In this document: piece after piece, positions 12,876 to 38,713 of the stretch
Position numbering within the stretch: position 1 is the stretch's first letter
Layout of the letters: each line of letters begins with the position of its first letter
DNA from: Calidithermus chliarophilus DSM 9957
Lineage (GTDB): Bacteria > Deinococcota > Deinococci > Deinococcales > Thermaceae
Assembly (NCBI RefSeq): GCF_000430045.1
Contig: NZ_KE387023.1
Coordinates: 1,611,391-1,652,090, forward strand
Length of the DNA stretch: 40,700 nt
Direction of reading: 5' to 3'
The notes under the pieces: model-generated
What the model saw: only the letters and a program-made list of their open reading frames with translations
Databases searched by the model: none
What the model was told of the DNA's origin: nothing
Made by a program: the position numbers and the translations under genes

Positions 12876-12884
12876 GGCTGAGCG

Positions 12885-13109
12885 GTCAGCTATCAGCGGA
12901 AGGCCCGTGGCTCCTGGCCTGTGGTGGACCCCACCCCGTCCCTCCCCGCACGCGGGGAGGGTTTATCCCCCCTAACCCCCCTTGCTAAGGGGGGTAAAGA
13001 AGGGGCGTTTTGCGTTTTGCGTCTTGCGTTTGGCGTATTGCGTATTGCGTACGGCGTAGGACGTACGACCCGCGCCCGGCGCCCGGCTATCGACCATCGA
13101 CCACCCACA
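12885..13109 (+). repeat. Heptad island A (trmB-aminotransferase)
   Basis: A clean array of fifteen 7-mers runs from 13,005 to 13,109 in one register: GCGTTTT, GCGTCTT, GCGTATT, GCGTACG, ACGTACG, CCCGGCG, ATCGACC and others. Upstream of it lie GCTATCA, GCTCCTG, GCCTGTG words, a CCCTCCCC/GGGGAGGG palindrome (about 12,940-12,961) and a CCCCCCTT-like/AAGGGGGG hairpin (about 12,976-12,995). Module order is the reverse of islands F, K and L, so this copy is inverted. No gene is visible. Confidence 0.85.
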
Positions 13110-13126
13110 TGCAATAAGCTATCCCC

Positions 13127-14293
13127 ATGCCGCACCCGTTCGACGAGCTGAACCTCGAGGAAGTAAAAGGCTCCCACTCGGTGAAGTGGAGCCTTTTTCC
13201 TGAAGACGTGCTGCCCCTTTGGGTGGCCGACATGGATTATCCCGTTGCCGAGCCCATCTTAGAGGCCATCCGGGAGAGGCTTTCCCGGCGCATCGGTTAT
13301 CCGCAGGGTGCGGGCGACCCCGAGTTGCTCGAGGCGATCATCGAGAAGCAGGAGCGGTTGGGGCTGAAGGGCTTGCAGCCTGAGAACCTGTGGCTCACCA
13401 GCAGCGTGGTGCCGGGCATCTGCGCCAGCATCCTGGCGCTGAGCAGCCCGGGCGACGAGGTGATCACGCAGGTGCCGGTCTATCACCCCTTCCTGATCGC
13501 GCTGAAGGAGTTCAACCGGGTCACCCGGGTCAACCCCATGCAGCCGGGGGAGACCCGCTGGGAGATCGACTTCGAGCAGCTCGAGTCCCTCGTGACCCCG
13601 GGCACCCGGATGCTGATGCTGTGCAACCCGCAGAACCCCACCGGGCGCGTGTTCACCCGGGCTGAGCTGGAGAAGCTGGCCGAGTTCGCCCTCCGGCACC
13701 GCCTGTGGGTCATGGTCGATGAGCTGTGGTCCGACCTGATCTACGAGGGGCAGCACGTCCCCTTCGCCTCGCTCTCGGAGGAGGTCGCCCAGCGCACCGT
13801 CACGCTCACCGGCCCCTGCAAGGCCTTCAACACCGCCGGGCTGGGGGGCGGGGTCGCCATCAGCCACAACAAGGAGATCCTGGCCCGCATGCAGAAGGTC
13901 AGCCTGGGCATCGGCGGCCACCCCAACGTGCTCTCCATGGCCGCCTGGCTCGGTGCCCTGCGGCACGGCCAGCCCTGGCTCGAGCAGACCCTGGCCTACC
14001 TCAAGGCCAACCGCGACTTCCTGACCCGCTTCCTCGCCGAGCGCCTCCCCGAGGTGCGCTACACCCCGCCCGAGGCTACCTACCTCGCCTGGCTCGACTT
14101 CCGGGCGCTGGGCCTCGAGGACCCCCACGCCTTCGCGCTCGAGCAGGCCAGGGTGGGCCTCAACGACGGCGCGATCTTCGGGGAGGGCTTCAAGGGCTAC
14201 CTGCGGCTCAACTTCGCCACCAGCCGCCCGCTGTTGCAGGAGGCGCTCGAGCGCCTGGCGTCGGCGCTGAAGATGTCGATGGTCGATAGCTGA
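13127..14293 (+). CDS. PLP-dependent aminotransferase, MalY/PatB type (probable cystathionine beta-lyase)
   Basis: Fold-type I pyridoxal-phosphate enzyme of 388 residues. The N-terminal KWSLFPEDVLPLWVADMDYP is characteristic of the MalY/PatB group, which cleaves C-S bonds of cystathionine-like substrates. Other residues: Y119, NPQNPTGRV at 167-175, D198 and the Schiff-base lysine K232 in GPCKAFNTAGL. The ribosome site is weak. The last codons (MSMVDS) are written in heptad-array words and the stop TGA belongs to a GCTGATA unit, so the 3' end runs into the repeat. The substrate is inferred from family only. Confidence 0.88.
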   Translation: MPHPFDELNLEEVKGSHSVKWSLFPEDVLPLWVADMDYPVAEPILEAIRERLSRRIGYPQGAGDPELLEAIIEKQERLGLKGLQPENLWLTSSVVPGICASILALSSPGDEVITQVPVYHPFLIALKEFNRVTRVNPMQPGETRWEIDFEQLESLVTPGTRMLMLCNPQNPTGRVFTRAELEKLAEFALRHRLWVMVDELWSDLIYEGQHVPFASLSEEVAQRTVTLTGPCKAFNTAGLGGGVAISHNKEILARMQKVSLGIGGHPNVLSMAAWLGALRHGQPWLEQTLAYLKANRDFLTRFLAERLPEVRYTPPEATYLAWLDFRALGLEDPHAFALEQARVGLNDGAIFGEGFKGYLRLNFATSRPLLQEALERLASALKMSMVDS

Positions 14294-14372
14294 TAGCTCA
14301 TAGCCGGACGCCGGGCGCGGGTCGTACGCCGTACGCCAAACGCCAAACGCCAAACGCCAAACGCAATACGCT
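14275..14372 (+). repeat. Heptad island B, left arm
   Basis: Fourteen consecutive 7-mers in one register: GTCGATG, GTCGATA, GCTGATA, GCTCATA, GCCGGAC, GCCGGGC, GCGGGTC, two GTACGCC, three AAACGCC, AAACGCA, ATACGCT. The first units overlap the end of the aminotransferase gene. Orientation is the same as islands F, K and L. Confidence 0.88.
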
Positions 14373-14402
14373 GGTTGTAGTGGTGGGCATGGGGAAGCGG
14401 TA

Positions 14403-14529
14403 ATACCAGATTCGGTTGGTCCGTCACCGTTCGGTGACGGACCAACCCGACCGAAGGGAGTGCTCTAGGATTCAAAAAGATAGCCTCCGGGCTCTTCGGA
14501 TCGGATGATTATCTTTTTGAATCCGGTAT
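14403..14529. mobile_element. MITE-like element with terminal and internal inverted repeats
   Basis: ATACCAGATTC (14403-14413) and GAATCCGGTAT (14519-14529) are 11-bp imperfect terminal inverted repeats with one mismatch. Inside are a 34-bp near-perfect palindrome (14414-14447, arms GGTTGGTCCGTCACCG) and a perfect 14-bp inverted repeat GGATTCAAAAAGAT / ATCTTTTTGAATCC (14468-14481, 14511-14524). It encodes nothing and is less GC-rich than its surroundings. It sits between two oppositely oriented heptad arrays. It may be a non-autonomous transposon or solo insertion-sequence ends; no obvious target duplication was seen. Confidence 0.6.
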
Positions 14530-14531
14530 AA

Positions 14532-14655
14532 GCTCTCAGCCCTCAGCTATCAGCTTTCCCAACCCCTTCCCCTCCCTCCGGTCGGAGGGAGGGGTGTTCA
14601 GCGTCTTGCGTTTGGCTATCGACTATCGACGTTTGGCCATCAGCTATCAGCGTCC
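14532..14655 (-). repeat. Heptad island B, right arm
   Basis: Words GCTCTCA, GCCCTCA, GCTATCA, then a perfect 11-bp stem CCCCTCCCTCC / GGAGGGAGGGG with a four-base loop (14569-14594), then GCGTCTT, GCGTTTG, GCTATCG, ACTATCG, ACGTTTG, GCCATCA, GCTATCA, GCGTCCG. This is the reverse orientation of the left arm. Its end overlaps the last codons and stop of the GNAT gene. Confidence 0.82.
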
Positions 14656-17454: not shown

Positions 17455-17572
17455 GCCGAACGCTGAACGTCGATAGCCGATAGCCGATAGCTCAACGCTT
17501 TTGAAGACAGGGCCCCTCCCCACCGGCGGGGAGGGGTGTTCTTTTCACCCCACACCACAGGCCACGAGCTGT
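17455..17572 (+). repeat. Heptad island C with terminator-like hairpin
   Basis: Units GCCGAAC, GCTGAAC, GTCGATA, GCCGATA, GCCGATA, GCTCAAC run in register from 17455. Then a 9-bp stem CCCCTCCCC / GGGGAGGGG is followed by TGTTCTTTT, so here the GC hairpin could act as an intrinsic terminator for the SPFH gene. CCACAGG- and CCACGAG-type words follow. Confidence 0.78.
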
Positions 17573-20053: not shown

Positions 20054-20869
20054 ATGAATAAACGCCTTTCCTCCTTCTTCGTCTACACCCTGCTGACGCT
20101 GGGTGCGTTGGCGATGGTCTTTCCCTTCGTCTGGATGGTGCTGACCTCGCTCAAGAGCTTCCAGGAGCTCTTCGACCTGCGCTGGCTGCCGCAGGAGCCG
20201 ACGCTCGAGAACTACCGCGAGGTGCTCTTCGGCACCCAGTTCCCCCGCTGGTTCCTCAACAGCCTGGTCGTGGCGGGCGTCACCACCGTCTCGGTGTTGT
20301 TCTTCGACAGCCTGGTCGGCTACACCCTGGCCAAGCTGCGCTTCCCCGGCAAGAACCTGATCTTCGTGCTGATCCTGGCCACGCTGATGGTGCCCACCGA
20401 GATGCTCATCATCCCCTGGTACGTCATGAGCGTGGACTACGGCTGGGTCAACACCTTCTGGGGCATCCTGTTCCCCGGCCTCATCAGCGCCTTCGGCGTC
20501 TTCCTCATGCGCCAGTTCTTCGAGTCGCTGCCCAGCGACCTGCTCGACGCGGGCCGCATCGACGGCCTGAGCGAGTTCGGGGTGTTCTGGCGGGTGGCCT
20601 TCCCGCTGGTGCGCCCGGCGCTGGCGGCGCTGGGCATCTTCACCTTTTTGGGCAACTGGAACGCCTTCTTGTGGCCGCTGGTGATCATCCAGACCCCCGA
20701 AATGCGCACCCTGCCCGTGGGGGTCGCGCTCTTCTCGGGCGAGGCGGGCACCGCCTGGCACCTGATCATGGCGGCCAGCAGCCTCGCGGTGATCCCGGTG
20801 CTCATCGTGTTCTTCATCTTCCAGCGCCAGATCATCGAGGGCGTGGTGCTCACCGGGGTCAAGGGGTAA
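20054..20869 (+). CDS. ABC sugar transporter permease, MalG/UgpE type
   Basis: The 271-residue product has six predicted membrane helices beginning VYTLLTLGALAMVFPFVWMVLTSLK, and the coupling motif DAGRIDGLSEFGVFWRVAFPLV. It forms the translocation channel with the upstream permease. The start ATG lies after a GGGAGGGGAAAGGG region 20 or more bases away, so the ribosome site is unclear. The importer lacks its own ATPase gene here. Confidence 0.93.
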   Translation: MNKRLSSFFVYTLLTLGALAMVFPFVWMVLTSLKSFQELFDLRWLPQEPTLENYREVLFGTQFPRWFLNSLVVAGVTTVSVLFFDSLVGYTLAKLRFPGKNLIFVLILATLMVPTEMLIIPWYVMSVDYGWVNTFWGILFPGLISAFGVFLMRQFFESLPSDLLDAGRIDGLSEFGVFWRVAFPLVRPALAALGIFTFLGNWNAFLWPLVIIQTPEMRTLPVGVALFSGEAGTAWHLIMAASSLAVIPVLIVFFIFQRQIIEGVVLTGVKG

Positions 20870-20873
20870 TTTC

Positions 20874-20957
20874 GCTGATAGCCCATAGCTCATAGCCGAT
20901 AGCTACTGAACGGTTAAGTTCCTTAGCCATCGACTATCGACTATCGACTATCGCCCC
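20874..20957 (+). repeat. Heptad island E
   Basis: Twelve consecutive 7-mers fill almost the whole gap between convergent genes: GCTGATA, GCCCATA, GCTCATA, GCCGATA, GCTACTG, AACGGTT, AAGTTCC, TTAGCCA, three TCGACTA, TCGCCCC. No hairpin module and no G-run module are present, so this is a minimal island. Confidence 0.85.
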
Positions 20958-20962
20958 CCCAC

Positions 20963-23470
<2,508 letters not shown>

Positions 23471-23474
<4 letters not shown>

Positions 23475-24217
23475 AGCCCCGTGGGGTGCTCGAGGAAGAC
23501 CCAGGGCAGGCCGAACTCGCGCTCGATGCGCTCGGCCAGGGCCTTCACGCCAAAGGTCTCGGTGTCGTAGTGCCCGGCGTAGATGGCGTTCATGCCCAGC
23601 TCGAAGGTGGGGTGGAAGTTCTGGTGCTTGGGCTCGCCGGTGATGAGCAACTCGGCCCCGGCGGCCTTGGCCTCGGCCACGTAGTCGGAGGCCGAGCCCG
23701 ACACCACCGCCACCCGCGTGACCTCGTTGGGGCCGCCCTGGTGGATGAGGCACTGCATCCCGGTCATCTGGCCCAGCCGGTCGCCGATCTCGGAGAGGGT
23801 GTGGGCCCGGAAGAGCGTGCCGATGAACCCCGCCTCGAAGGGCTCGAGGTTTTGCAGCCCCAAAGCCTGCGCGATCACCGCGTTGTTGCCCACCTCGGGG
23901 TGGACGTCGAGCGGCAGGTGCGAGGCGTAGAGGCTGATGCCGCCCTGGAAGAGGGCCTCGAGGCGCCGCTTGTGAATCCCCACCACCGGCATGACCCCGC
24001 CCCAGAACAGCCCGTGGTGCACGATCATGAAGTCCACGCCCTGCTCGCGGGCCTGCTCGATGGTGGACTGCGCGGCGTCCACCGCCGCGCCCACTTTCGT
24101 CACCCGCTCGGCCCCCTCCACCTGGAGCCCGTTGAGCGAGAGGTCGCGCATCTGCCTTGTGATCTCCTGGGTCTTGAGGAATTCGTCCAGCCAGCGGACG
24201 AGGGTGTCGCGGTGCAT
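23471..24217 (-). CDS. Nif3-like dinuclear metal-centre protein (DUF34)
   Basis: The 248-residue product (start ATG 24217) has VDFMIVHHGLFWGG (His 67-68), YASHLPLDVHPEVGNN, ITGEPKHQNF and AGHYDTETFG, the metal-binding blocks of the NIF3/YbgI family, sometimes named GTP cyclohydrolase 1 type 2 although the function is unproven. Upstream in-frame codons lie inside a heptad array and are not coding. ATG lies seven bases after TAGACT without a ribosome site. First gene of a four-gene coupled operon. Confidence 0.92.
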
Positions 24218-24232: not shown

Positions 24233-24490
24233 GCTGAACGTCGAACGCTGGACGCCGGGCGCTGATAGCCGATAGCCCATAGCTGATAGCTGGGCACGGG
24301 TCGTGCGGCGTACGTCGTACGTCGTACGCAAGACGCCAAACGCCAAACGCGAAACGCAAGACGCAAAACGCAAAACGCAAAACGTAAAACGTAAAACGCA
24401 AAACGCCTTGTCACCCCCCTATAACAAGGGGGGCTCCTCCCCGCTGGCGGGGAGGGAAGGGGAGGGGCCCACCACAGGCCACACGCCTCC
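24233..24490 (+). repeat. Heptad island F (longest uninterrupted array)
   Basis: Twenty-five 7-mers stay in one register from 24,233 to 24,407: GCTGAAC, GTCGAAC, GCTGATA, GCCGATA, GTACGTC (two in a row), GTACGCA, AAACGCC, AAACGCA, AGACGCA, AAACGTA and variants. Then come a CCCCCCTATAAC-AAGGGGGG hairpin, a CCTCCCCGC-GCGGGGAGG stem and a four-G-run motif at 24,449-24,467. Reverse-strand words GTGGCCT, GAGGCGT, GTGAAGG reach the end of murE. Confidence 0.92.
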
Positions 24491-24492
24491 CT

Positions 24493-25947
24493 TCACCCGT
24501 CTCCCTGAACCCGATGCCCGCGCAGGGCGGTCTGCACCTCCTCCACCTCGTTCCAGGGGATCGCCTCGGTGCCGCGCTCGAGCGTGCGCTCGTGTCCCTT
24601 GCCCGAGAAGAGGACGGTGTCGCCGGGGCGGGCGGTCTCGACGGCGTAGCGGATGGCCTCGCGCCGGTCGCCGAGGCAGACGTGGCGGCGGGGGTCGCCG
24701 TGGGCCTGGGCCATGGTTTGCAGGATGGCCTCGAGGCTCTCGGTGCGGTGGTCCTCCTCGGTGAAGACGGCGAAGTCGGCGAGCTCGGCGGCGACCTGGC
24801 CGATGCCGGTGCGGCGGCTGGGGTCCTGGTTGCCGGCTGCGCCGATCACCACGACCAGGCGGCCGCGGGTGGTGGGGCGCAGGGTCTCGAGCGCCGCCCG
24901 CAGGCTGGCGCCGGTGTGGGCGAAGTCCACGATGGCCCGGAAGGGCTCGGCCTGCAGGAGTTGCATGCGGCCTGGGACGCCCGGGAAGCTGGCGAGGCCC
25001 TGCTGGAGCTCCTCGACCGGGAGGCCCAGCCGGGCGGCGGCGGCCATCGCCGCCAGGGCGTTGTCGGCGTTGAAGCGGCCGACCATGGGGAGTTGAACCT
25101 CGAAGGCGCCGACGGGGGAGCGCACCTCGAACTCGAGCCCCCCCGCGTGCTCGCGCAGCTTCGCGGCGCGCCAATCCCCGGCCGCGCCGTAGCTCCAGGT
25201 GCCGGGCTCCGCGGCCAGGGTGCGGGTCCAGGGGTTGTCGCTGTTGACCACGCGCCAGCGGGAGCGCTCGAGCAGCTTCTTCTTCTCGGCGAAGTAGTTC
25301 TCCATGCTGCCGTGCAGGTCGAGGTGGTCCTCGAAGAGGTTGGTGAAGATGCCCACCGCGTATTCCAGGCCGCGCACCCGCTCGAGCTGCAGCGCGTGGC
25401 TGGAGACCTCGAGCACCGCCCGCCGGCACCCGGCCTCCACGAAGCGGTGGAGCATCTCCTGCACCTGCGGGGCCTCGGGGGTGGTGAAGTGGCCGGGGAG
25501 GAACAGCTCTTCCGCGCCGATCTTGACGCCCACCGTCGAGAGCCGCCCCACCGGGGGCTGCGCCGACTGGAGCAGGTGGTGCAGCAGCACCGCCACGGTG
25601 GTCTTGCCCTTCGATCCCGTCACCCCGGCGAGCTCGAGCCGCCGCGCGGGGTAGCCCCAGAAGGCCGCGGCTAAGTCGGCCAGGGCGGCCCGGTCGTCGT
25701 CCACCTTGCAGTAGGGGACGGGCAGAACCAGCTCCCGGGTGCCCACTACCGCGACGGCGCCGCGCTCGAGCGCCTGCGGGATGAAGTCGTGGCCGTCGAG
25801 GGGCGGGCGGCTCTTGAGGGGGACGCCCCGGACGGCCACGAACACGAAGCCGGGCTCCACCTGCCTCGAGTCGTGGGTCACCCCCCGCACCGGCAGGGCA
25901 GGGGCTTCGCGGCCGAGCAGGGCGAACAGGTCGCGCAGCGTGGTCAC
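24493..25947 (-). CDS. murE: UDP-N-acetylmuramoyl-tripeptide synthetase (MurE), atypical specificity motif
   Basis: Mur ligase of 484 residues adding the third amino acid to UDP-MurNAc-dipeptide. It has DSRQVEPGFVFVAVRG, the ATP loop GVTGSKGKTT (108-117), VLEVSSHAL, FTNLFEDHLDLHG and SMENYFAEKKKL (carbamylated-lysine region). The specificity site that reads DNPR in meso-diaminopimelate enzymes reads EDHR here (398-401, in EEDHRTES). Deinococcus-Thermus murein contains L-ornithine, so Orn is the likely substrate. GTG start lies six bases after TAGAAT. The C-terminal RVQGDG is encoded in heptad words. Confidence 0.92.
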   Translation of the reverse strand: MTTLRDLFALLGREAPALPVRGVTHDSRQVEPGFVFVAVRGVPLKSRPPLDGHDFIPQALERGAVAVVGTRELVLPVPYCKVDDDRAALADLAAAFWGYPARRLELAGVTGSKGKTTVAVLLHHLLQSAQPPVGRLSTVGVKIGAEELFLPGHFTTPEAPQVQEMLHRFVEAGCRRAVLEVSSHALQLERVRGLEYAVGIFTNLFEDHLDLHGSMENYFAEKKKLLERSRWRVVNSDNPWTRTLAAEPGTWSYGAAGDWRAAKLREHAGGLEFEVRSPVGAFEVQLPMVGRFNADNALAAMAAAARLGLPVEELQQGLASFPGVPGRMQLLQAEPFRAIVDFAHTGASLRAALETLRPTTRGRLVVVIGAAGNQDPSRRTGIGQVAAELADFAVFTEEDHRTESLEAILQTMAQAHGDPRRHVCLGDRREAIRYAVETARPGDTVLFSGKGHERTLERGTEAIPWNEVEEVQTALRGHRVQGDG

Positions 25948-28067: not shown

Positions 28068-28082
28068 AGCGGGAAACGGCGA

Positions 28083-28236
28083 GCTGACAGCCTTCAGCCG
28101 TCAGCGGTAAGCGTGTGGCTCGTGGTTCGTCGGGGGTCGGGGGCCAAAGCTTTTTGCGGTTGGCGTAGGGCGTAGGACGTACGACGTACGACCCGCGACC
28201 CGCGCCCGGCACCCGGCGCGGCATCCGGCGTCCGAC
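28083..28236 (+). repeat. Heptad island G
   Basis: About 22 consecutive 7-mers: GCTGACA, GCCTTCA, GCCGTCA, GCGTGTG, GCTCGTG, GGGGGTC, GGGGGCC, TTGGCGT, AGGGCGT, ACGACGT, GCGACCC, GCGCCCG, GCACCCG and others, in unbroken register. No strong hairpin module is present. It fills the gap between the reductase and Nudix genes. Confidence 0.85.
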
Positions 28237-29222: not shown

Positions 29223-29233
29223 GCGAGGGATGA

Positions 29234-29409
29234 GCGGTCAGCGATCAGCCTTAGCCCTCAGCTCGTGGCTCGTGGTTCACCCCTTCCTCCCCGCGTGCGG
29301 GGAGGGTTTATCCCCCCAGCCCCCCTTGCTAAGGGGGGTGAAGAAGGGGCGTCTCGCGTTTTGCGTTTGGCTATCGGCTATGGGCTATCAACCATCGACC
29401 ATCGACATC
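29234..29409 (-). repeat. Heptad island H
   Basis: In island-A orientation: GCGGTCA, GCGATCA, GCCTTAG, CTCGTGG twice, then a CCTCCCCGC-GCGGGGAGG palindrome, a CCCCCCTTGC-AAGGGGGG-type hairpin, then GCGTCTC, GCGTTTT, GCGTTTG, GCTATCG, GCTATGG, GCTATCA, ACCATCG twice, and ACATCCT. It ends exactly at the Pho-box-like promoter. Confidence 0.85.
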
Positions 29410-32622: not shown

Positions 32623-32670
32623 GCCCAGGCCAGCCGCGCCACCCACGCCCGCTCCTCGGGCCTGAACCAG

Positions 32671-32761
32671 GCCGATAGCCCAACGCCGGGGGCGGGTCGT
32701 ACGTCGTACGTCTTACGTCGTACGCCTTGGCCCTCGACCCTAGACCCTGGACCCTCGACGG
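32671..32761 (+). repeat. Heptad island I
   Basis: Thirteen 7-mers: GCCGATA, GCCCAAC, GCCGGGG, GCGGGTC, GTACGTC twice, TTACGTC, GTACGCC, TTGGCCC, TCGACCC, TAGACCC, TGGACCC, TCGACGG. Lies between convergent DinB-like and gyrB genes. Confidence 0.85.
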
Positions 32762-32851: not shown

Positions 32852-35020
<2,169 letters not shown>

Positions 35021-35175
35021 ATGGCTAAACGCGCAAAACGCAAGACGCAAGACGCCTTGGCCCCTCGAGCCTCGACGCTGGCGGGGAGAGTTGGGGAGGG
35101 GTTCCTTTTTCACCACGAGCCACACGCCACAGGCCAAGAACCTCACAAGCCACGTGAAAGCTCCCCTCGAGCCTT
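35021..35175 (+). repeat. Heptad island J
   Basis: GCCGATG, GCTAAAC, then ACGCAAG, ACGCAAG, ACGCCTT, CGAGCCT, CGACGCT, GCGGGGAG-rich stretch and CCACGAG, CCACACG, CCACAGG words. One or two phase shifts are present. It lacks the CCCCCCTT hairpin. Confidence 0.72.
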
Positions 35176-37792: not shown

Positions 37793-37823
37793 CCGTAGGT
37801 CGGGCGGGAAACGCAAAATGCAC

Positions 37824-38085
37824 GTCGATAGTCGATGGTCGATAGCTGATAGCCAAACGCCAAACGCAAGACGCAAAACGCCAAACGCAAAACGCCAAAC
37901 GCAAGACGCAAGACGCAAAACGCAAGACGCGGGACGCCTTGTCACCCCCCTTAGCAAGGGGGGCAGGGGGGGATAAACCCTCCCCGCGCGCGGGGAGGGC
38001 TGGGGAGGGGTAAACCACGGGCCACAAGCTGACCGCTTACCGCTGACGGCTGATCGCTGAAAGCTTCCCGCTTCCTGCTTCCCTA
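37824..38085 (+). repeat. Heptad island K
   Basis: Sixteen 7-mers in unbroken register (37,824-37,935): GTCGATA, GTCGATG, GCTGATA, GCCAAAC, GCAAGAC, GCAAAAC and variants. Then CCCCCCTT-AGC-AAGGGGGG hairpin, a perfect 22-bp palindrome with arms CCCTCCCCGCG, four G-runs at 37,992-38,010, CCAC-type words, and a second array GCTGACC, GCTTACC, GCTGACG, GCTGATC, GCTGAAA, GCTTCCC, GCTTCCT, GCTTCCC ending on the stop codon of the next gene. The most complete island. Confidence 0.92.
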
Positions 38086-38482: not shown

Positions 38483-38713
38483 GCTAGAAGCTGAACGCTG
38501 AACGCCGATTGCTGATAGCTGATAGCCGGGCGTGGGTCGTACGTCTTACGTCGCACGCGAGACGCCAAACGCTAAACGCCTTTTCTTCACCCCCCTTAAC
38601 AAGGGGGGCCAGGGGGGATACCCCCTCCCCGCGCGGGGAGGGTTGGGGAGGGGTTCCCACGAGCCACTAGTTCGTTGCTGGCGGCTGACGGCTACCTGCT
38701 TCCCCCCGGCCCT
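38483..38713 (+). repeat. Heptad island L
   Basis: Fourteen 7-mers in register (38,483-38,580): GCTAGAA, GCTGAAC, GCTGAAC, GCCGATT, GCTGATA, GCTGATA, GCCGGGC, GTGGGTC, GTACGTC, TTACGTC, GCACGCG, AGACGCC, AAACGCT, AAACGCC. Then the CCCCCCTTAAC-AAGGGGGG hairpin, a CCCTCCCCGCG-type palindrome, four G-runs at 38,635-38,653 and closing words GCTGACG, GCTACCT, GCTTCCC. Same order as islands F and K. Confidence 0.92.

What the first reader, a model, noticed from the sequence alone, without database searches (positions are those of the whole stretch)
24233..24490. Composite element with conserved module order
Islands F, K and L read, in one direction: GCTGAAC words, GCTGATA words, a GGGC/GGGTC link, GTACGTC words (absent in K), AAACGCA words, a CCCCCCTT-AAGGGGGG hairpin, a CCCTCCCCGCG palindrome, a G-run motif, then CCAC and GCTGACG words. 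Islands A and H show the same order inverted. A shared order in two orientations suggests an element that is copied or moved as a unit, with unit numbers varying. There is no protein gene inside, so any mobilising enzyme would act in trans.
Basis: partly seen in the sequence, partly recalled or inferred. Interest (0 to 1): 0.72.

Follow-up and report, generated by a model that had tools for sequence, protein, structure and literature searches.

The report
Dispersed triplex-core repeat with 7-bp arrays
A hot-spring bacterium carries hundreds of copies of a gene-free DNA element, built from two triple-helix-type hairpins between ordered stretches of 7-letter repeats, that spread as one unit long ago and now changes mainly by gaining or losing whole 7-letter repeats or by deletion, giving a readable record of how non-coding repeats spread and decay in bacteria.

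Summary
The window is from a Calidithermus-like Thermaceae (4.69 Mb). Ordered pairs were 15/15, 22/22, 27/27, 17/17 and 18/18. The "hairpin", "palindrome" and "G-run" are two consecutive intrastrand triplex motifs, of the type known from E. coli box C. The whole left arm is in one 7-bp register.

In C. roseus (flanks 85-90% identical) all core-bearing window islands compared are absent. Conversely, 13 of 14 mapped C. roseus elements occupy the same site in this genome. Orthologous left arms differ by multiples of 7 bp in 9 of 13 pairs (p=1e-5). Copies found only here are as diverged as shared ones, near-identical pairs are rare, no target-site duplication was seen, and no REP-associated transposase passes its cut-off.

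Reading: an old, unit-wise dispersed repeat, now evolving by heptad slippage and deletion, rather than an element shown to be moving now. "Copied as a unit" is supported; a trans-acting enzyme is not. The composite appears new; its parts are known kinds.

The parts
24233..24488 (+). Composite element F (whole)
   Evidence: absent from the orthologous site in C. roseus
24233..24309 (+). F: outer left heptads (GCTGAAC/GCCGGGC, then GCTGATA words, then the GGGTC link)
   Evidence: continuous 7-bp register
24310..24407 (+). F: inner left heptads (GTACGTC, then AAACGCA/AAACGCC words)
   Evidence: period 7, 11.6 copies
24414..24433 (+). F: first triplex motif, hairpin only (CCCCCCTATAACAAGGGGGG); the third strand GGGGGGAT seen in other copies is lost here
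24436..24467 (+). F: second intrastrand triplex motif CCTCCCC-GCTGGC-GGGGAGGG-AA-GGGGAGGGG
   Evidence: same design as the E. coli motif in PMC4666352
24470..24488 (+). F: right arm, CCAC words only
12878..13126 (-). Composite element A, complete, inverted
14273..14371 (+). Left-arm-only island B; with A it brackets a gene that is inverted relative to C. roseus
14496..14653 (-). Island C, heptads with a variant triplex motif
17455..17569 (+). Island D, short left arm, second triplex motif and CCAC words
20860..20961 (.). Island E, heptads only
28081..28217 (-). Island G, heptads without triplex core
29224..29408 (-). Composite element H, inverted
32670..32760 (+). Island I, left heptads followed by GACCCTC-type words, no triplex core
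35015..35136 (+). Partial composite J
37807..38066 (+). Composite element K (complete core, no GTACGTC block)
37945..38011 (+). K: both triplex motifs, CCCCCCTT-AGC-AAGGGGGG-..GGGGGGGAT and CCCTCCCC-..-GGGGAGGG-CT-GGGGAGGGG
38488..38670 (+). Composite element L

Best explanation
A non-coding composite repeat of Calidithermus: left heptad array, two intrastrand triplex motifs, right heptad array. Shown: it is one unit with fixed module order; it is dispersed in hundreds of copies in both orientations; it sits between genes, mostly between convergent genes or genes in tandem; C. roseus lacks it at the core-bearing window sites compared and shares it at others; at a shared site the outer ends stay put while the arms change by whole heptads. 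Inferred: the unit spread in the Calidithermus lineage before or around the split from C. roseus and is now inherited mostly vertically. The G/C-rich triplex motifs hinder DNA polymerase, which promotes 7-bp slippage in the adjoining arrays and breakage or recombination at the element. That would explain the heptad gains and losses, the loss of copies from C. roseus and the inversion between A and B. The original route of dispersal is unknown. The element is probably selfish or neutral and tolerated at gene ends.
For: Unit and copy number: 208 palindromes vs 1 control; at least 150 double-motif cores in this genome (all 150 scored candidates matched), 22 in C. roseus, 4 and 1 in the sister genus, 0 in two Meiothermus-type genomes; 56 strong cores in 835 kb. 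Constant order. Triplex design: the second third strand has A 17, T 15, C 1 opposite the A-T pair; 49 exact first-motif matches, loop AGC in 34. The same three-block design is described for E. coli, with polymerase stops and local genome instability (PMC4666352). Register: lag-7 identity 0.71. Slippage: orthologous left arms differ by a multiple of 7 in 9 of 13 pairs. Old dispersal: 13 of 14 mapped C. roseus elements have a core at the same site here; unique copies are as diverged as shared ones; few near-identical pairs. Loss in C. roseus: gene remnant at site G, heptad remnants at L and A/B. Placement: 0 cores in genes, 21 of 53 between convergent genes (p=3e-5 by gap count, 3e-4 by length), 3 of 53 between divergent genes (p=0.02 and 4e-4).
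Against: Triplex formation is read from sequence only. Covariation gives no support, because the stems hardly vary. At F, G, H and J the C. roseus gap holds no recognisable heptad remnant, so insertion in this lineage fits those sites as well. The outgroup Meiothermus loci are empty at F, which also fits late gain. Core divergence may be a poor clock, because orthologous cores are only 83% identical while paralogous ones are 77%, and gene conversion among copies could blur ages. Four of 13 pairs do not differ by a multiple of 7. Only two Calidithermus genomes could be compared.
Confidence: 0.6

Rival explanations
1. A MITE-like element still being inserted by a transposase acting in trans (IS200/IS605 or another family); the copies found only in this genome are recent gains.
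For: About an order of magnitude more copies here than in C. roseus; empty sites in C. roseus and in Meiothermus at F; six Y1 transposase genes in the genome.
Against: No terminal inverted repeats or target-site duplication seen; no Y1 gene flanked by the element; no burst of near-identical copies; the hairpins are central, not subterminal as IS200/IS605 ends require (established knowledge of that family).
Confidence: 0.17
2. A REP/BIME/REPIN relative spread by a REP-associated tyrosine transposase.
For: Intergenic palindromes in high copy, mostly at gene 3' ends; the second motif is of the E. coli box C type; similar motifs occur as inverted pairs about 100 bp apart in a Verrucomicrobiaceae genome.
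Against: No protein in this genome or in C. roseus passes the REP-associated transposase cut-off (E. coli rings in the same control); the two IS200-type proteins tested score 30-38 bits against a cut-off of 80; no single-unit REP core with a tag was found.
Confidence: 0.08
3. A functional regulatory element kept by selection, for example a two-way transcription barrier between convergent genes or a protein-binding heptad array.
For: Enrichment between convergent genes and avoidance of divergent ones; strict core conservation across genera.
Against: Most window sites are empty in C. roseus with the same genes on both sides; orientation in tandem genes is random, 14 vs 15; placement may only show where insertions are tolerated.
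Confidence: 0.12
4. Independent local expansion of 7-bp words at each site, with no common unit.
For: Heptanucleotide repeats are common in bacteria and attributed to slippage (PMC4679880; PMC4692102).
Against: The same order of about ten unrelated modules in dozens of copies and in a sister genus.
Confidence: 0.02

Closest known systems
Intrastrand triplex motif (TM, E. coli box C type; Holder et al. 2015, PMC4666352)
   Same: Pyrimidine arm, purine arm and mirror third strand; intergenic; both strands; copy number differs greatly among relatives; linked to instability.
   Different: Here two such motifs in tandem form the core of a 150-300 bp composite with heptad arrays on both sides. No such flanks were mentioned in the parts of the paper read.
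Intergenic heptanucleotide repeats (Xanthomonas/Nostoc GGGNATC, PMC4692102; Beggiatoaceae TAACTGA, PMC4679880; cyanobacterial STRR, from memory)
   Same: Period 7, intergenic, variable unit number at conserved sites.
   Different: There one word is repeated per array. Here about ten words come in fixed order and one register around a structured core.
Mosaic small noncoding repeats (SNR) of Deinococcus radiodurans (PMC1978522)
   Same: Same phylum; about 300 mosaic intergenic repeats; absent from a congener.
   Different: Sequence relation not tested; heptad arrays and triplex cores are not mentioned in the passages read.
REP/BIME/REPIN
   Same: High-copy intergenic palindromes, preferring gene 3' ends.
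   Different: No REP-associated transposase; longer composite; tandem arrays.

Membership tests
Intrastrand triplex motif (TM) | Three consecutive blocks: pyrimidine arm, complementary purine arm, mirror-symmetric third strand, stem 8 or more, short loops | tested here: met
   third-strand base opposite the A-T pair is A or T in 32 of 33
Intrastrand triplex motif (TM) | Always intergenic, no strand bias | tested here: met
   0 cores in genes; tandem orientation 14 vs 15
Intrastrand triplex motif (TM) | Forms a stable triplex and stops polymerase | not testable with these tools
   Only hairpin folding was run
Heptanucleotide tandem repeat | Head-to-tail 7-bp units, number variable between relatives | tested here: met
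REP/REPIN with RAYT | REP-associated tyrosine transposase in the genome | tested here: not met
   No match over cut-off in G000 or G003
MITE | Terminal inverted repeats | tested here: not met
   By inspection, left ends (GTCGATR or GCTGAAC words) and right ends (GCTGACG/GCTTCC words) are not complementary
MITE | Target-site duplication | tested here: inconclusive
   None at F, G, H, K, L against C. roseus, but junctions lie in fast-evolving spacers
Deinococcus SNR | Sequence membership of one of the SNR types | not tested
   No SNR sequences at hand

The most novel reading that the evidence does not exclude
The element needs no transposase: polymerase stalling at the double triplex core frees a heptad-bearing strand that re-primes elsewhere by 7-bp microhomology, so that a structured core with slippable arms is itself a self-spreading unit, a transposase-free class of mobile repeat.
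Probability: 0.12. Interest if true: 0.85.

Novelty: new variant of a known kind. Interest (0 to 1): 0.55.

Why it matters
Triplex-forming motifs and 7-bp repeats have been described separately as sources of instability. Here they are joined in one unit present in hundreds of copies, with a related species that keeps a small shared subset. Gain, loss and slippage can therefore be read copy by copy, and the question of whether triplex motifs drive slippage and rearrangement becomes testable in one genus.

Tried and rejected
Rfam gave no match. A DNA pattern over the right half of the core found nothing in genome contigs outside this genome, so that collection gave no named carriers. Y1 transposases as the autonomous partner: none flanked by the element, none over the RAYT cut-off. 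Covariation as a test of the stems: uninformative, the columns are nearly invariant. Automatic definition of element ends by 7-bp periodicity: ends overrun, no fixed terminal motif. The query of C. roseus flanks was cut short when pasted (3,379 of 4,680 bases), so 5 of the C. roseus elements were not mapped. Random module order and chance origin are refuted.

Full report
OBSERVATION. Island F and its fellows are real. F runs from 24233 to about 24488 between a Nif3-like gene (23471-24217, minus) and a Mur ligase gene (24493-25947, minus). It is a train of 7-bp words, a C/G hairpin, a CCTCCCC..GGGGAGGG palindrome, GGGGAGGGG and CCAC words. K and L read the same way; A and H are inverted.

GENOME SCALE. 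The window is contig 3, 1611391-1652090, of a 4.69 Mb genome. Its Mur ligase is 85% identical to that of Calidithermus roseus. The palindrome pattern has 208 places against 1 for the reversed control. Thirty loci show nearly the same composite. In 835 kb of sampled sequence I find 56 strong cores (67 per Mb), hence about 300 genome-wide, and about 139 heptad islands per Mb at a strict threshold against 8 per Mb in reversed sequence. A 74-position model finds at least 150 in this genome (cap reached), 22 in C. roseus, 4 and 1 in two genomes of a sister genus and none in two Meiothermus-type genomes. Over 111 genomes of the phylum the stricter core-to-CCAC pattern is found in only four.

ORDER. 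In 33 core-bearing copies the module order is constant. A sister-genus copy has the same order (L266).

ANATOMY. The core is best read as two intrastrand triplex motifs in a row: CCCCCCTT-AGC-AAGGGGGG-(2-3)-GGGGGGAT and CCCTCCCC-GCNNGC-GGGGAGGG-NN-GGGG[A/T]GGGG. Each has a pyrimidine arm, a purine arm and a mirror third strand. The third-strand base opposite the single A-T pair is A 17, T 15, C 1, and 49 distinct first-motif matches were counted. This is the design of the E. coli motif of Holder et al. 2015 (PMC4666352), which is intergenic, stops polymerase in primer extension and marks unstable loci. Similar motifs occur in other phyla. Identity at lag 7 in the left arm is 0.71, against 0.27 in flanks. 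Triplex formation itself is not shown here.

PLACEMENT. No core lies in a predicted gene. 21 of 53 lie between convergent genes (expected 16-18%) and 3 between divergent genes (expected 17-24%). The gene calls are from a simple codon-usage script.

COMPARISON WITH C. ROSEUS. Alignment of the window gives conserved flanks and missing islands: F 280 vs 49 bp, G 612 vs 11, H 188 vs 40, J 308 vs 210, K 238 vs 20, L 215 vs 9, and both junctions of A/B. In the other direction, of 15 C. roseus elements taken, 14 map; at 13 the core is present at the same site in this genome, and at one the spacer is longer but no core was found. So nearly all C. roseus elements tested are shared, while the window's are not. 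Either this lineage gained many or C. roseus lost many. Three facts lean to old dispersal with loss: unique copies are as diverged as shared ones (0.773 vs 0.780); near-identical pairs are rare; and some empty sites carry scars. Site G keeps only the end of a Nudix-type gene in C. roseus, and L and A/B keep heptad words that few random C. roseus windows match (0.7-1.2%). F, G, H and J show no heptad remnant, so gain here remains possible at those sites.

CHANGE IN PLACE. At shared sites the outer ends agree while the arms differ by whole heptads: 9 of 13 left-arm length differences are multiples of 7 (p=1e-5). Two of the exceptions (3 and 32 bp) are complex exchanges that include the 4-bp-offset GGGTC link.

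REARRANGEMENT. The aminotransferase gene 13111-14287 is inverted relative to C. roseus and is bracketed by the oppositely oriented islands A and B. A 1.1-kb duplication in L145 has an element in each copy, next to an assembly gap. In a Meiothermus-type genome the element is cut near the palindrome centre.

MECHANISM. Shown: unit structure, order, dispersal, empty and shared sites, heptad-wise change. Inferred: polymerase stalling at the core and slippage in the arms; deletion and recombination at the element; an old, unknown dispersal route. Not found: terminal inverted repeats, target-site duplications, a RAYT, or an element-flanked Y1 gene.

NOVELTY. The parts are known kinds (triplex motifs; heptanucleotide repeats; mosaic SNR in Deinococcus). 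The ordered composite of two triplex motifs between two heptad arrays is, as far as the papers searched show, not described. I rate it a new variant of a known kind.

Noticed in passing
window 13111-14287 with islands A (12878-13126) and B (14273-14371): The aminotransferase gene is inverted relative to C. roseus and is bracketed by oppositely oriented islands, as expected from recombination between inverted copies.
   Followed up: partly
window about 14400-14530; also L014, L021, L026, L243, L246: A second repeat, ATACCRGATTC...GAATCCGGTAT, about 130 bp with inverted ends, lies next to or inside the islands; it looks like an ordinary MITE and is also near a Y1 transposase gene (L031).
   Followed up: no
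L246 (G012) against L243 (G002): About 1.5 kb with coaBC, the MITE and the right half of the element is 92% identical between two genera; in G012 the element is cut near the centre of the palindrome.
   Followed up: partly
L145 7712-8953: Two copies 1.1 kb apart, 99% identical over 434 bp, with a 100-N assembly gap between them; possibly a segmental duplication or an assembly artefact.
   Followed up: no
genome of L061 (Verrucomicrobiaceae, G121): 87 triplex motifs of the CCCTCTCCC..GGGAGAGGGCTGGGGTGAGGG type, many as inverted pairs about 100 bp apart.
   Followed up: no
islands G (28081-28217) and I (32670-32760): The triplex core is absent or replaced by words such as CGACCCC or GACCCTC between the arms, so the middle of the element is exchangeable.
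   Followed up: no
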